Position numbers and translations under genes: made by a program. Shown piece by piece: positions 4,256 to 14,870 of a stretch of DNA of 14,999 bases. The stretch is from Candidatus Undinarchaeales archaeon SRR5007147.bin71 (lineage in GTDB: Archaea; Undinarchaeota; Undinarchaeia; Undinarchaeales; Undinarchaeaceae). The stretch lies in contig DVAE01000007.1 of the NCBI GenBank assembly GCA_014189675.1, positions 1 to 14,999 on the forward strand. The letters run 5' to 3'. Numbering within the stretch: position 1 is the stretch's first letter; the number at the start of each line of letters is the position of its first letter. Below the pieces are notes generated by a model. The model ran no database searches and was not told the DNA's origin. It saw nothing but the letters and a program-made list of their open reading frames with translations.

Positions 4256-5521
4256 TTAGTTTGATAATTTACTAATTATTTTCTCAATGCCGAGCTCTTC
4301 CTGCTTTCCGCTTTCCATATTCTTCAAGGTGTATTTCTTTGATTTTACTTCTTTCTCGCCGACTACGAGTGAATAAGCTATACCAAGAGAATTTGCATAA
4401 TTGAATAGCTTGCTCGGACCACGCTTCATCAAGTCTATTGATGATGGAATTCCAGCATCTCTTAGCTGCTGGACAATTTTTGCGGCATCTTTGAAGGTGT
4501 TCCCAATTGGAATGACGAGGACTTTAGTCTCAGTTTTTGGGATGTCTACCATTTTTCGCTCCTTCATTATCTCAATTATCCTTTCAACTCCGATGGAACA
4601 GCCTGTTGCCGGCATATCGGATTTTCCGTAGACTCCAATGAGATCATCATAACGGCCACCAGCCCCAACACTTCCGTATTTCTCCATTCCCTTCACTTTT
4701 ATCTCGAACACGAAACTGGTATAGTAAGCAAGTCCGCGCACCATAGACAGAGTAAGTTTTAGCCATTTTCCAAGGCCGAGGGATTTTGAAGCCTTCAGAA
4801 GCTCCTTTGTTTTGGCAAGTTCGGCGCTTTCAGGCAGTTTTTCTTCAAGCTCCTTCATGCCGGCAGTTTCTATAAATTTCAGGAACTTGTCAACATTTTT
4901 GATTCCTTTGTCCTCTATTTCCTTTTTGACAGAATTCATCCCTATCTTGTCAAGCTTGTCTATGCATCTGAACAAATCAGGGCACTTAACTCGTGGAATT
5001 TCGAATAGTTCGGCAAGTTCCTCTAGAAGTGCTCTGTTATTTACTTCAACTATGAAATCTTTGAAACCCAGGGCTTTAAGCGAGGCTACAACGGCCCCTA
5101 CTGCATCAAGATCTGCCTCGACCTCCGTGGAGCCTACAACATCGACGTCTGCCTGCCAGAACTCGCGGTAACGTCCAGCCTGAGGCTGGTCATAGCGCCA
5201 TACGCGCCCTATCTGGAAGCGCTTGAAAGGCCTTGGAATCATCGGATTGTTGGCAATATAGCGCGCCATTGGAACTGTTAAATCGAAACGGAGACCCATC
5301 TCACGCTCACCATAGTCAGTAAAACGGAATATCTCTTGTGAGACATCTTCTCCACCAGCACTCTTAGCGCTAAGCGTTTCCCAGCGCTCGAAGGCCGGAG
5401 TTTCCAGCTCCTGATATCCGTAGGTCTTGTAAACTCTCCTGATTGTGTCGAAAACATAGTTTCTCAAAGACATTTCCTGCGGACTGAAATCACGTGTTCC
5501 TTTTGCTTTTTCAAAAGCCAT
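4256..5521 (-). CDS. hisS: Histidyl-tRNA synthetase
   Basis: The 421-residue class II enzyme joins histidine to tRNA-His in the cytoplasm. Visible elements: KGTRDF near residues 7-12; RFDLTVPMARYIANN at 78-92; motif 2 with FKRFQIGRVWRYDQPQAGRYREF from about 99 to 121; histidine-binding RGLAYYT at 263-268; GAGGRYDDL at 287-294; motif 3 GCSIGVERI at 307-315; and a C-terminal anticodon-binding domain from about 332 (KVLVIPIG). I start it at the ATG at 5521, preceded by AAGGTGAT as a Shine-Dalgarno. The frame stays open 20 codons further, but that extension runs into tRNA-His and lacks family similarity. The tRNA-His gene lies 21 bp upstream on the same strand, so tRNA and synthetase are likely on one transcript. 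The length is normal. Confidence 0.97.
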   Translation of the reverse strand: MAFEKAKGTRDFSPQEMSLRNYVFDTIRRVYKTYGYQELETPAFERWETLSAKSAGGEDVSQEIFRFTDYGEREMGLRFDLTVPMARYIANNPMIPRPFKRFQIGRVWRYDQPQAGRYREFWQADVDVVGSTEVEADLDAVGAVVASLKALGFKDFIVEVNNRALLEELAELFEIPRVKCPDLFRCIDKLDKIGMNSVKKEIEDKGIKNVDKFLKFIETAGMKELEEKLPESAELAKTKELLKASKSLGLGKWLKLTLSMVRGLAYYTSFVFEIKVKGMEKYGSVGAGGRYDDLIGVYGKSDMPATGCSIGVERIIEIMKERKMVDIPKTETKVLVIPIGNTFKDAAKIVQQLRDAGIPSSIDLMKRGPSKLFNYANSLGIAYSLVVGEKEVKSKKYTLKNMESGKQEELGIEKIISKLSN

Positions 5522-5542
5522 AGCAATCACCTTGAGACTGAG

Positions 5543-5615
5543 GGCCCGGACCGAGAATTGAACTCGGATCTCTAGCTCCACAAGCTGGAAGGATAACCAT
5601 TACCCCATCCGGGCC
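5543..5615 (-). tRNA. tRNA-His (GTG)
   Basis: The minus strand folds as a full cloverleaf. The acceptor stem begins GGCCCGGA; position -1 is an encoded G (5615) that can pair with the discriminator C73 (5543), the hallmark of tRNA-His. The anticodon GTG is at 5581-5579, with U33 before it and G37 after. The T arm is CCGAG, TTCAATT, CTCGG. No CCA is encoded. One oddity is a C28-A42 mismatch in the anticodon stem (5587 with 5573); other stem pairs are good. Because the G-1 is encoded, no guanylyltransferase step would be needed if 5' processing leaves it. It sits just upstream of hisS, with a degenerate copy further upstream. Confidence 0.93.
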
Positions 5616-8552: not shown

Positions 8553-8626
8553 GGGGTCGTGGTCTAGCTTGGTATGATGCCTGCTTTGGGAGCAGGAGAT
8601 CAGGAGTTCAAATCTCCTCGACCCCA
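8553..8626 (+). tRNA. tRNA-Pro (TGG)
   Basis: The sequence folds as a full cloverleaf. The acceptor stem pairs GGGGTCG with CGACCCC, with A73 at 8626 and no encoded CCA. The anticodon arm is CCTGC, TTTGGGA, GCAGG with anticodon TGG, read as proline. The T arm is AGGAG, TTCAAAT, CTCCT. I see no intron. Confidence 0.95.
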
Positions 8627-10629: not shown

Positions 10630-11724
10630 GTGGATATTGTGGGAGAAAAAGCGCTACTTGTACTCGAGGATGGAGTTGTTTTTAAAGGGGAGTTTTTCGG
10701 AGCATCTTCTGAGGTTTTTGGAGAGGTTGTATTTAGCACAGGAATGACTGGATATCAGGAGGCTCTTACTGACCCTTCATACCGAGGACAAATACTTACT
10801 ATGACATATCCGCTTGCCGGGAATTATGGAATAAATAGTGAGGATTTTGAATCAAATGAAATACAAGTCCGTGGGCTCCTGGTTTCAGGAGCCTGTGAAT
10901 TTCCCTCAAACCACAGGAAGGAAAAAACACTTGGAACTTTTCTTAAGGACTATAAAATCCCAGGACTGCAAGGAATAGACACAAGAGAACTTACCAGAAA
11001 ACTACGCAAGCATGGAACAATGCGCGGAAAAATTTGCAGAGAGGGTATTGACACAGAAAAAGTTGCAGAAGAGCTTCGGAAAAGGCCTTATCCTGACAAT
11101 GAGGATCTGCTTCCGGAAGTCTCGAGAAAGAATGAAGAAATCTACGAAGCAGATGGAAATCTGAAGGTTACTTTGATAGACTGTGGTGCCAAAGAGAATA
11201 TAATTAGGTGTCTTGTTAGGAGGGGAGTTACCGTCCGTGTTGTTCCAGCAAGAACTGGAGCAGAAGATATTCTTAAAGAAGCAGACGGAGTAATGATTTC
11301 GAACGGACCAGGAAATCCGTCGAAAGCTTCCTATCTTATCGATACTGTAAAGAGTTTGTTTGGTGAAGTCCCACTTTTTGGGATTTGCCTTGGTCACCAG
11401 ATAATAGGGCTGGCGGCTGGGGCTAAGGCTTACAAGCTTAAATTCGGACACCGTGGATTAAACCACGGAGTAAAGGAGCTGGAAAGTGGACGAGTTCACA
11501 TAACAACCCAAAACCATGGCTACTCTATCGATGAAAAAAGTTTGGAAAAGACTGGTTTTGAAGTTACCCATGTAAACCTTAATGATGGATCTGTCGAAGG
11601 AATACGTCACAAGGAGCTTCCAATATTTTCAGTACAGTACCACCCAGAGGGATGCCCTGGCCCGATGGATAATGAATATTTGTTTGACAAGTTTGTGGAG
11701 GTAATGAATGCCAAAAAGAAGTGA
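10630..11724 (+). CDS. carA: Carbamoyl-phosphate synthase small (glutaminase) subunit
   Basis: The 364-residue subunit splits glutamine and passes ammonia to CarB. The N-terminal CarA-specific domain has STGMTGYQEALTDPSYRGQI and GIDTRELTRKLRKHG; the C-terminal class I amidotransferase has the nucleophile elbow FGICLGHQIIG with Cys253, and the His338/Glu340 pair in QYHPEG. The triad is complete and the length is normal. The start is a GTG at 10630; a second in-frame GTG at 10639 would shorten it by three residues and fits the family start equally well. The gene overlaps carB by 17 bp, and its last codons carry carB's Shine-Dalgarno. Confidence 0.97.
   Translation: MDIVGEKALLVLEDGVVFKGEFFGASSEVFGEVVFSTGMTGYQEALTDPSYRGQILTMTYPLAGNYGINSEDFESNEIQVRGLLVSGACEFPSNHRKEKTLGTFLKDYKIPGLQGIDTRELTRKLRKHGTMRGKICREGIDTEKVAEELRKRPYPDNEDLLPEVSRKNEEIYEADGNLKVTLIDCGAKENIIRCLVRRGVTVRVVPARTGAEDILKEADGVMISNGPGNPSKASYLIDTVKSLFGEVPLFGICLGHQIIGLAAGAKAYKLKFGHRGLNHGVKELESGRVHITTQNHGYSIDEKSLEKTGFEVTHVNLNDGSVEGIRHKELPIFSVQYHPEGCPGPMDNEYLFDKFVEVMNAKKK
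11697..11702 (+). promoter_or_regulatory. Shine-Dalgarno for carB inside carA
   Basis: GGAGGT lies five bases before the carB ATG at 11708, within the last codons of carA. This fixes the carB start and indicates coupled translation of the two subunits. Confidence 0.8.
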
Positions 11725-14700
11725 TATTAAAAAAGTTCTTGTGATTGGAGCAGGTCCCGTTGTTATTGGTCAGGCTGCCGAATTTGACTACTCAGGTTCC
11801 CAGGCTCTCAAATCTATAAGGGAAGAGGGTCTGAAAACTGTGGTGATAAACTCGAACCCTGCAACTATACAAACAGATACCGATATGGCTGATTCTGTAT
11901 ATATTGAACCATTGACACTTGAGTCTCTTACAAGAATAATAGAAAAGGAAAAGCCGGACGGAGTTCTCTCCAGTTTTGGAGGGCAGACCGGGCTTAATCT
12001 GACAGCAGAGCTCGCAGATGCAGGAGTTCTTGAGAAAAATGATGTTGAAATATTAGGAACTCCTCTGAAAGCGATAAAAGACTGCGAAGACAGGAAACTT
12101 TTCAAAGATATGATGATTGCTATAGACGAACCAATACCAGAATCAGGAGTAGCTAATAGTATTGATGAAGCACTGAATATAGCAGAGAAAGTGGGATTTC
12201 CTGTGATAGTACGTCCGGCTTATACTTTAGGAGGAACAGGGGGAGGAATAGCTGAGAATATGCGGGACCTCGAAAATATTGCTGCAGGGGGAATAGCAAA
12301 CAGTAGGATAGGGCAAATTCTGATTGAGGAATGTGTGACCGGGTGGAAGGAAATAGAATATGAAGTAATGAGAGACTCAGCAGACAATTGCATAACAGTC
12401 TGTAATATGGAAAATTTTGATCCTGTTGGAATTCATACAGGAGACAGCATAGTTGTCGCGCCATCCCAGACTCTGACAGATAAAGAATATCAGATGTTGA
12501 GGAGTGCTTCCCTGAAAATAATAAGAGCTCTGAAAGTAGAAGGAGGATGTAATATACAGTTTGCTCTGGATCCGGAAAGTGATAGGTATATTGTAATAGA
12601 AGTAAATCCACGGGTTTCCAGAAGCTCGGCGCTGGCCTCAAAAGCAACCGGATACCCAATAGCACTGATTGCTGCAAAAATATCTATAGGAATGACGCTT
12701 GATGAAATTGAGAATCCTATAACAGAAGAAACAAAGGCTAGTTTTGAGCCGGCTCTTGATTACATTGTAACCAAGATACCACGGTGGCCTTTTGAAAAAT
12801 TCTATCTTGCAGATAGAACACTTGGAACTGAAATGCGCTCGACAGGAGAAGTTATGGCAATAGGGAGAACTTTTGAAGAAAGTCTTGAAAAAGCTGTGGC
12901 AAGTCTGGATATTGATAAGGAAAGCCTTGAAGAGGGGGCTGAGGATTTTGAGAGGCCCTATCATCTGGAAATACCAACTCACAAGAGGCTTTTCTATATA
13001 GCTTCTGCTCTGAAAAAGGGGATGGATGTTATGGAAATACGCAAAATGACTGGAATAGACCCTTGGTTCCTTAATGGTGTCAAAAAAGTCTTTTCAAAGA
13101 GAGAAGAACGCAATGGATTTAAGATGGTTGATACATGCGCTGCCGAGTTTGCGGCAAAAACTCCGTATTTTTATTCGGCCAAGGGGGAGAATGAAGCTGA
13201 AACAGAAAAGAAGCGGAAGGTCATGATATTGGGTTCTGGTCCAATAAGGATTGGACAGGGGATAGAATTTGACTACTCTACTGTTCATGCACTAGGAGCA
13301 ATAAAGGAAGAAGGTATAGAGTCAATAATAATAAACAATAATCCTGAAACTGTATCAACAGATTATGATACATCAGACCGTCTTTATTTTGAACCGCTGA
13401 CATTTAGCAGTGTGATGAGGATAATTGATAACGAAAAGCCTTACGGAGTGATGACTCAATTTGGAGGACAGACTTCTGTGAATCTTTCTCTTTCATTAGA
13501 AAAAGCCGGAGTGAATATATTGGGGACTTCTCCTAAGAACATGGACCGGGCTGAGGACAGGGATAAATTTTCAAAAGTTATAGAAAAATTAGGAATACCC
13601 CAAGCAGAGAATGGTATTGCGCACAGCATTGAGGAAGCAAGGAACGTAATAGAAAGAATTGGATACCCGGTGCTTATACGACCGAGCTATGTGATAGGGG
13701 GAAGGGCTATGGAAATTGTGTTTAATGATTTAGATCTTGAGCGATATATCAGTGAGGCTGTCAAGGTTTCGAAAGATCATCCAGTATTGATAGACGAATT
13801 CCTTGGAAGTGCGACGGAAATAGATGTAGACGCTGTTTCTGACGGAACAGACACACTAATAGGAGGAATAATGGAGCATATAGAACAGGCTGGAATCCAT
13901 TCAGGAGACTCGAGTTGTGTTACACCAACACAAACTTTGACGGAGGAAGAAATCAGAACAATTAAGAAATATACCAGGGAGCTTGCACAGGAACTCGGGA
14001 TAAAGGGACTCCTGAATATACAGTACGCAGTCAGAGATTCTGTTGTCTACGTTCTAGAAGTCAATCCCAGAAGTAGCAGAACTGTTCCATTCATAAGCAA
14101 GGCATCAGGGATTCAGCTTGCAAAAATTGCGGCAAAGGTGATGCTTGGAAAAAGTCTGAAAGAGATTGGAAATGTTGAACCAGAGAAAAATCAGCATGTA
14201 TCTGTGAAATCCGTTGTTTTCCCTTTCAACAAAATACCAGGCTCAGATACCGCGCTCGGACCTGAGATGAAAAGCACTGGAGAAGCTATGGGAATTGCTG
14301 ACAACTTCCCGATTGCTTATTACAAGGCACAGCAGGGAGCCGGTCTGAGGCTGCCGGAAAATGGAAAAATTTTCTTTGCTGTACGGAATAGAGATAAGGA
14401 AAAGGCTGTAGAAATTGCAAGGGAATTTGAAAATATGGGGTTCAAGATAGCAGGAGCAGGAAGAACCGCTAAAATGTTGAGAGTTAATGGAATTAAGGTA
14501 CAGAAGGTTTTGAAATCCGGGGAAGGGATACCAGACATAGTCACTATGATTAAAGAGAAGGGAATTGATTTAGTGATAAATACACCGACAACTGCAGGAA
14601 GCCGAGAAAGAGCAGGTTATAAAATACGGAGAGCCTGTATAAAACATGAAATACCATGTATAACGACAATGTCCGGAGCGGGGGCAGCTCTTGAGGCAAT

Positions 14701-14770
14701 AAAATTCAGAAAGTATAATGGAGTCCTCAACGAAGCAATGTCCTTGCAGGATTATCACAGAAAGCGATAA
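11708..14770 (+). CDS. carB: Carbamoyl-phosphate synthase large subunit, with shortened oligomerisation domain
   Basis: The 1020-residue subunit makes carbamoyl phosphate from bicarbonate, ATP and ammonia for pyrimidine and arginine synthesis. Two homologous ATP-grasp halves are visible: the first from LVIGAGPVVIGQAAEFDYSG near residue 12, with NPRVSRSSALASKATG; the second from VMILGSGPIRIGQGIEFDYS at about 505, with NPRSSRTVPFISKASG. A C-terminal MGS-like allosteric domain covers about 886-1020 (FFAVRNRDKEKAVEI). The usual length is about 1060-1075. The shortfall is in the oligomerisation domain: only 18 residues separate GIDPWFL from VDTCAAEF, against about 65 in the E. coli protein as I recall it. 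The frame is intact on both sides, so this is a real internal deletion and not a broken gene. No part of the catalytic halves looks affected. Confidence 0.97.
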   Translation: MPKRSDIKKVLVIGAGPVVIGQAAEFDYSGSQALKSIREEGLKTVVINSNPATIQTDTDMADSVYIEPLTLESLTRIIEKEKPDGVLSSFGGQTGLNLTAELADAGVLEKNDVEILGTPLKAIKDCEDRKLFKDMMIAIDEPIPESGVANSIDEALNIAEKVGFPVIVRPAYTLGGTGGGIAENMRDLENIAAGGIANSRIGQILIEECVTGWKEIEYEVMRDSADNCITVCNMENFDPVGIHTGDSIVVAPSQTLTDKEYQMLRSASLKIIRALKVEGGCNIQFALDPESDRYIVIEVNPRVSRSSALASKATGYPIALIAAKISIGMTLDEIENPITEETKASFEPALDYIVTKIPRWPFEKFYLADRTLGTEMRSTGEVMAIGRTFEESLEKAVASLDIDKESLEEGAEDFERPYHLEIPTHKRLFYIASALKKGMDVMEIRKMTGIDPWFLNGVKKVFSKREERNGFKMVDTCAAEFAAKTPYFYSAKGENEAETEKKRKVMILGSGPIRIGQGIEFDYSTVHALGAIKEEGIESIIINNNPETVSTDYDTSDRLYFEPLTFSSVMRIIDNEKPYGVMTQFGGQTSVNLSLSLEKAGVNILGTSPKNMDRAEDRDKFSKVIEKLGIPQAENGIAHSIEEARNVIERIGYPVLIRPSYVIGGRAMEIVFNDLDLERYISEAVKVSKDHPVLIDEFLGSATEIDVDAVSDGTDTLIGGIMEHIEQAGIHSGDSSCVTPTQTLTEEEIRTIKKYTRELAQELGIKGLLNIQYAVRDSVVYVLEVNPRSSRTVPFISKASGIQLAKIAAKVMLGKSLKEIGNVEPEKNQHVSVKSVVFPFNKIPGSDTALGPEMKSTGEAMGIADNFPIAYYKAQQGAGLRLPENGKIFFAVRNRDKEKAVEIAREFENMGFKIAGAGRTAKMLRVNGIKVQKVLKSGEGIPDIVTMIKEKGIDLVINTPTTAGSRERAGYKIRRACIKHEIPCITTMSGAGAALEAIKFRKYNGVLNEAMSLQDYHRKR

Positions 14771-14795: not shown

Positions 14796-14870
14796 GGGCC
14801 TGTAGCCTAGTCTGGATAAGGCGATTGCCTTCTAAGCAATAGATCGGGGGTTCAAATCCCTCCAGGCCCA
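14796..14870 (+). tRNA. tRNA-Arg (TCT)
   Basis: The cloverleaf is complete. The acceptor stem pairs GGGCCTG with CAGGCCC, with A73 at 14870 and no encoded CCA. The anticodon arm is ATTGC, CTTCTAA, GCAAT with anticodon TCT, reading AGA (and probably AGG). The D arm is GCC...GGC and the T arm is GGGGG, TTCAAAT, CCCTC with one G-U pair. It starts 25 bp after carB on the same strand with no clear promoter of its own in the gap, so it may be processed from the carAB transcript. A T-rich stretch (CTTTCTTATTT) follows. Confidence 0.95.

What the first reader, a model, noticed from the sequence alone, without database searches (positions are those of the whole stretch)
13060..13150. CarB lacks about 47 residues of its oligomerisation domain
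Both ATP-grasp halves and the MGS-like domain are intact and in frame, yet between GIDPWFL and VDTCAAEF there are only 18 residues. In the E. coli protein, as I recall it, about 65 lie there, including the helical segment with the LKRKGF motif. The oligomerisation domain contributes to tetramer formation and to linking the two active sites, so the assembly or regulation of this enzyme may differ from the textbook form.
Basis: partly seen in the sequence, partly recalled or inferred. Interest (0 to 1): 0.6.

Follow-up and report, generated by a model that had tools for sequence, protein, structure and literature searches.

The report
Shortened central domain in archaeal CarB
A group of marine archaea makes an otherwise normal enzyme for carbamoyl phosphate (a nucleotide building block) from which one helical module of the central "oligomerisation" domain has been cleanly deleted, showing that this widely conserved piece can be lost from an enzyme still under strong selection.

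Summary
CarB (window 11708-14770, 1020 aa) has 18 residues between GIDPWFL and VDTCAAEF. E. coli has 65, and 117 other full-length CarB sequences have about 46-75. The missing piece is the second helical hairpin of the D3 ("oligomerisation") domain, the K..GFSD...VR..R module.

It is not an assembly error. Three of the four readable CarB proteins of this phylum (Undinarchaeota) share the deletion; the fourth, matching Ca. Naiadarchaeum limnaeum, keeps a full-length but eroded version and is sister to the short ones. So there was probably one loss. Among roughly 190 archaeal genomes with the domain, every other intact single-chain CarB keeps at least part of the hairpin. Split archaeal CarB genes break in the same loop, yet the CarB2 halves read start with it. 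One bacterium (G511) lost it independently.

The rest is ordinary: all 12 catalytic positions checked, MGS domain and CarA are intact, dN/dS is 0.058, and the AlphaFold model superposes on E. coli CarB (1013 residues, 1.3 A). Most likely it is an active CarAB with D3 reduced to a one-hairpin spacer. Altered oligomerisation is plausible but untested. A new variant of a known enzyme, of modest interest.

The parts
10630..11724 (+). carA, glutaminase subunit of carbamoyl phosphate synthetase (364 aa), ordinary, overlaps carB start by 17 bases
   Evidence: TIGR01368 487 bits over cut-off 307; GICLGHQ and HPE motifs present, no unusual insertion against relatives
11708..14770 (+). carB, large subunit of carbamoyl phosphate synthetase (1020 aa), short form
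   Evidence: NF003671 1526 bits, TIGR01369 1460 bits; Pfam CPSase_L_D1 x2, CPSase_L_D2 x2, MGS
12962..13108 (+). retained first half of the D3 (oligomerisation) domain, hairpin A with TGIDPWFL (PF02787 positions 2-50 of 80)
   Evidence: AlphaFold pLDDT about 90-94 over residues 421-460
13073..13126 (+). 18-residue remnant NGVKKVFSKREERNGFKM that replaces the 65-residue stretch of E. coli (residues 464-528); deletion of the second hairpin (B)
   Evidence: pLDDT about 69 over residues 461-480
13127..13150 (+). VDTCAAEF, start of the second synthetase half, intact

Best explanation
The window encodes an otherwise canonical glutamine-dependent carbamoyl phosphate synthetase (CarAB) of a marine Undinarchaeota archaeon. 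An ancestor of the marine lineage lost, by one in-frame deletion, the second of two related helical hairpins that make up the central D3 domain. What is left is one hairpin (A), which still bridges the two ATP-grasp halves, followed by a short linker that ends in the usual FKM-VDTCAAEF. The enzyme most likely still makes carbamoyl phosphate from glutamine, bicarbonate and 2 ATP through the usual tunnel-linked sites and, in this genome, feeds pyrimidine synthesis (pyrB and pyrI present). D3 acts as a spacer between the halves. Shown: the deletion, its distribution, intact catalytic residues, purifying selection. Predicted: an unchanged monomer fold. Inferred and untested: that the enzyme is active, and that assemblies made across D3 (the E. 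coli-type tetramer) are weaker or absent while the CarAB heterodimer and contacts through the allosteric domain remain.
For: 18 versus 65 residues, single open frame. The same short form in G001 (91%) and G005 (66%). The tree of CarB without D3 puts the four phylum members in one clade (support 1.0), with full-length G003 sister to the three short ones (0.934). G003's second hairpin is already eroded: AKKFGFIYEQIENITHKKLKKEFLRN. dN/dS 0.058 against G001. All positions equivalent to E. coli R129, R169, E215, E299, N301, R303, R675, R715, E761, E841, N843, R845 are kept (window R129, R169, E215, E298, N300, R302, R618, R658, E704, E784, N786, R788, invariant in 46 sequences; their catalytic role is from general knowledge). 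AlphaFold pLDDT 88.6, pTM 0.90; 1013 residues superpose on E. coli CarB 1bxr at 1.3 A, Z 53.2. ATCase catalytic and regulatory subunits are in the genome. Hairpins A and B of D3 are similar to each other (hhalign score 23.5 against 8.6 +/- 2.0 for 200 shuffles, none as high), and the deletion (47 aa) is close to the A-to-B spacing (50 aa in E. coli), consistent with loss of one repeat unit.
Against: No activity or oligomer data exist. AlphaFold was trained on E. coli CPS and given an alignment of long forms, so the unchanged architecture is partly expected. The lost module holds four nearly invariant residues (K, D, R, P) and is kept even where CarB is split in two, so its loss probably has some cost or compensation that was not identified. 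The deletion boundary is not exactly one repeat period.
Confidence: 0.78

Rival explanations
1. The deletion abolishes the D3-mediated tetramer and alters allosteric control: an obligate heterodimer or dimer with changed UMP or activator response.
For: In E. coli, tetramers form by two dimers meeting across their oligomerisation domains, and the small subunit also contacts that domain (PMC6245113). About half of D3 is gone here.
Against: The same review says oligomerisation per se does not affect regulation, and human CPS1 is mostly monomeric yet active (PMC4655335). From memory, the E. coli tetramer mutant residue L421 lies in the retained half, so the lost hairpin may not be the contact. The predicted fold of the allosteric domain is unchanged.
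Confidence: 0.35
2. The hairpin was lost because the arginine branch was lost and CarB now serves pyrimidines only.
For: G000, G001 and G002 show one carbamoyltransferase each; those of G000 and G001 are aspartate carbamoyltransferases.
Against: G005 has the short CarB and both ATCase and ornithine carbamoyltransferase, so the deletion predates or is independent of that loss. The genomes are only 75-86% complete.
Confidence: 0.05
3. Assembly or binning error, or a decaying gene.
For: The genome is a metagenome bin of 39 contigs, 83% complete.
Against: Independent assemblies share it in frame, dN/dS is 0.058, catalytic residues are intact, and hairpin A evolves at a normal relative rate (2.16 against a control median of 2.13).
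Confidence: 0.02
4. The missing hairpin is supplied in trans by another gene, as in a split CarB.
For: Several archaeal families split CarB at this very loop and start CarB2 with hairpin B.
Against: Only one PF02787 match exists in the genome and CarB here is one chain. 17% of the genome may be missing, and the Pfam model covers only part of hairpin B, so a short orphan hairpin could be overlooked.
Confidence: 0.03

Closest known systems
E. coli carbamoyl phosphate synthetase large subunit CarB (PDB 1bxr, 1jdb)
   Same: Domain order, both ATP-grasp halves, MGS-like allosteric domain, catalytic residues; 1013 residues superpose at 1.3 A, about 48-51% identity
   Different: E. coli residues 464-528 (65 aa) are replaced by 18; second hairpin of D3 absent
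CarB of Ca. Naiadarchaeum limnaeum (G003, matched by its 97,397-base contig to PMC7414124 Table 1)
   Same: Nearest full-length relative, same phylum, sister in the CarB tree
   Different: Keeps the full length (1080 aa frame) but with an eroded hairpin B
Split archaeal CarB1/CarB2 (handles in families f15, f25, f44, f73; Methanocaldococcus jannaschii is the textbook case, from memory)
   Same: Chain interrupted in the same inter-hairpin loop of D3
   Different: CarB2 starts with hairpin B, which is therefore kept
CarB of bacterium G511 (L174)
   Same: Also lacks hairpin B: 28 residues between WFL and VDTCAGEF
   Different: Bacterial, independent loss; carries an insertion of roughly 60 aa upstream of hairpin A in D3; no other genome among 56 of its order matched in one gapless piece

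Membership tests
Glutamine-dependent carbamoyl phosphate synthetase large subunit (TIGR01369 / NF003671) | Whole-protein score above the curated cut-off | tested here: met
   1459.8 bits against 1027 (TIGR01369) and 1525.7 against 599 (NF003671)
Glutamine-dependent carbamoyl phosphate synthetase large subunit (TIGR01369 / NF003671) | Two pre-ATP-grasp plus ATP-grasp halves and a C-terminal MGS-like domain | tested here: met
   Pfam D1 x2, D2 x2, MGS
Glutamine-dependent carbamoyl phosphate synthetase large subunit (TIGR01369 / NF003671) | Catalytic residues of both phosphorylation sites | tested here: met
   12 of 12 equivalent positions identical and invariant in 46 sequences; their role is from general knowledge
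Glutamine-dependent carbamoyl phosphate synthetase large subunit (TIGR01369 / NF003671) | Partner glutaminase subunit CarA | tested here: met
   carA at 10630-11724, TIGR01368 487 bits
Full-length-D3 form of CarB (usual, but not required by the family models) | Complete D3 (oligomerisation/integrating) domain with both hairpins | tested here: not met
   PF02787 positions 2-50 of 80 only; hairpin B absent. The family models above are still passed, so this makes it a variant, not a non-member
E. coli-type (alpha-beta)4 oligomer | Ligand-dependent tetramer through the oligomerisation domain | not testable with these tools
   needs purified protein
Split CarB1/CarB2 enzymes | Two chains broken between the D3 hairpins | tested here: not met
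   one uninterrupted frame of 1020 codons

The most novel reading that the evidence does not exclude
The second hairpin of D3 is a removable module: marine Undinarchaeota, and independently one bacterium, run a functional CarAB without it. The module's conserved role (quaternary assembly or folding of the two halves, rather than catalysis) has then been lost or taken over, which makes these enzymes natural deletion mutants for finding out what D3 is for.
Probability: 0.45. Interest if true: 0.45.

Novelty: new variant of a known kind. Interest (0 to 1): 0.33.

Why it matters
D3 has been called a domain of unknown function, an integrating domain and an oligomerisation domain, and it carries human CPS1-deficiency mutations. 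A natural enzyme that lost half of it while staying under strong selection separates what the domain is needed for from what it merely accompanies. The nested distribution (intact, eroded, deleted, within one phylum and its relatives) and an independent bacterial loss make this testable by direct comparison. It remains a detail of one well-known enzyme.

Tried and rejected
Arginine-branch loss as the cause: rejected, because G005 has the short CarB with both carbamoyltransferases. Relaxed selection on the retained hairpin: not seen; the rate ratio is at the control median. Compensating change in CarA: none visible (G005's CarA was not in that alignment). Hidden diverged hairpin B in the window protein: a profile of hairpin B gives only 5.8 bits on the window's D3 segment, against 60 for profile A. 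Hairpin B supplied elsewhere in the genome: no second PF02787 match. 'Most archaeal CarB are short': rejected. Literature searches for a D3-deleted CarB found nothing. Weak helix-turn-helix Pfam hits to a typical hairpin-B sequence that I composed (below cut-offs) were not pursued. Bacterial sampling listed only about 150 best rows per search, so other short forms may be missed.

Full report
Observation. CarB is an uninterrupted frame at window 11708-14770, behind carA (10630-11724). Between GIDPWFL (residues 449-455) and VDTCAAEF (474-481) lie 18 residues. PF02787, the D3 domain, matches only its positions 2-50 of 80. Everything else scores as a normal CarB: TIGR01369 1460 bits, NF003671 1526 bits.

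Which organism. The phylum is represented by six held genomes. Three sizes match Table 1 of the Undinarchaeota paper (PMC7414124). The G003 contig of 97,397 bases is the largest contig of Ca. Naiadarchaeum limnaeum (SRR2090159.bin1129), and the G005 contig of 74,625 bases is the largest of GCA_002502135.1. G000, with 623,718 bases in 39 contigs and about 42% GC in the first 10 kb of the window, fits SRR5007147.bin71 (0.62 Mbp, 39 contigs, 42.0% GC). So the window is very probably from a marine Undinarchaeota bin. This is inference from sizes, not a sequence match to named records.

Distribution. The short form is in G000, G001 (same genus, 91% identical) and G005 (another family, 66%, 20 residues). 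G003 (98% complete) keeps a frame of 1080; G002 has only fragments and G004 no match. Of 393 archaeal genomes, 190 have PF02787, and the weaker matches were re-read. Intact single-chain CarB reach profile position 76-80. Matches ending at 46-60 belong to split carB1 genes, apart from a few fragments at contig edges and the own-phylum short forms. In families f25 and f44 and f15 and f73, the carB2 genes that were read begin with the missing piece (for example MDIKKLKRMGFLDSQLGDEAAVRKMRKEAGVNAVFKMVDT in G171). Two other archaea (L131, L156) have a trimmed but present second half (46-47 residues). In bacteria, 288 of 377 and 324 of 399 sampled genomes matched a profile of the short region. Only the top hit of the first set, G511, proved short: 28 residues and no K..GFSD motif, PF02787 3-45. 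The other 55 genomes searched in its order did not match in one gapless piece. The listings show only the best rows, so this is a lower bound.

History. In a tree built without D3, the four phylum proteins form one clade (1.0) and full-length G003 is sister to the three short ones (0.934). The simplest reading is one deletion in the marine lineage after its split from Naiadarchaeum. G003 itself shows an eroded second hairpin, so constraint may have relaxed before the deletion. G511 groups with bacteria, so its loss is independent.

What was lost. The lost module contains four positions nearly invariant across the 46-sequence alignment, in which all but the window are long forms (K, D, R, P). 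Profile comparison shows that the retained hairpin A (G.sv.EI..lT.IDxWFL) and the lost hairpin B (GFSDxxIAxLxxxxExxVR) resemble each other: hhalign score 23.5 against 8.6 +/- 2.0 in 200 column shuffles, none as high. The spacing from A to B is 50 residues in E. coli, close to the 47 deleted. D3 can therefore be read as two related hairpins joined by a loop that tolerates both gene splitting and deletion. This is my inference; I found no paper that says it.

Is the enzyme alive? dN/dS against G001 is 0.058 for the whole gene. The retained hairpin changes about twice as fast as the rest, which is what 194 control pairs of long CarB also show (2.16 against a median of 2.13). All twelve catalytic positions checked are invariant. 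AlphaFold gives pLDDT 88.6 and pTM 0.90, with the new linker at about 69; 1013 residues superpose on E. coli CarB at 1.3 A, Foldseek TM 0.97. Because the method knows E. coli CPS and saw long forms, this shows compatibility, not proof. CarA has no unusual insertion. The genome has ATCase catalytic and regulatory subunits, so carbamoyl phosphate has a use.

Consequence. In E. coli, dimers form through the regulatory domains and tetramers across the oligomerisation domain, the small subunit also touches that domain, and oligomerisation per se does not affect regulation (PMC6245113). Human CPS1 is active mainly as a monomer (PMC4655335). The equivalent domain in CPS1 is called integrating and carries 29 of 264 reported mutations (PMC6713721). 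I judge that the short enzyme is active and keeps its monomer architecture. Whether it has lost the tetramer is open. Loss of the arginine branch does not explain the deletion, because G005 has both carbamoyltransferases.

Verdict. It is a new variant of a known enzyme, real and lineage-specific, of modest interest (0.33).

Noticed in passing
G003 (L024, L115, L117), D3 region: The full-length CarB of the sister genome has an eroded second hairpin (AKKFGFIYEQIENITHKKLKKEFLRN) without the GFSD and VRxxR motifs: a possible intermediate before deletion.
   Followed up: partly
L174 (G511), residues about 405-560: A bacterial CarB that independently lost hairpin B and also carries a low-complexity-like insertion of roughly 60 residues upstream of hairpin A.
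   Followed up: partly
G171: C1 483875-484783 (-), 511515-511844 (+), 703519-705243 (+): CarB appears broken into at least three separate pieces at distant places of a single-contig archaeal genome (L168, L171, L150).
   Followed up: no
L131 and L156 (G131, G340): Two archaeal CarB with a trimmed second D3 half (46-47 residues): GFSD or GFSP kept, the following VRxxR helix lost.
   Followed up: no
L125, L128, L130, L144-L154 (families f15, f73): carB split into carB1 and carB2 on different contigs or distant loci, with the break in the same loop of D3 where the Undinarchaeota deletion starts.
   Followed up: partly
window 5543-5614 (-), 8553-8626 (+), 14796-14870 (+): Three tRNA genes; the first overlaps the mechanical GTG start of the histidyl-tRNA synthetase-like frame (4256-5581), which therefore probably starts further in.
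   Followed up: no
G000/G001/G002 against G003/G005: Ornithine carbamoyltransferase is present in G003 and G005 but was not found in the window's genus, suggesting loss of the arginine branch there; the genomes are incomplete.
   Followed up: partly
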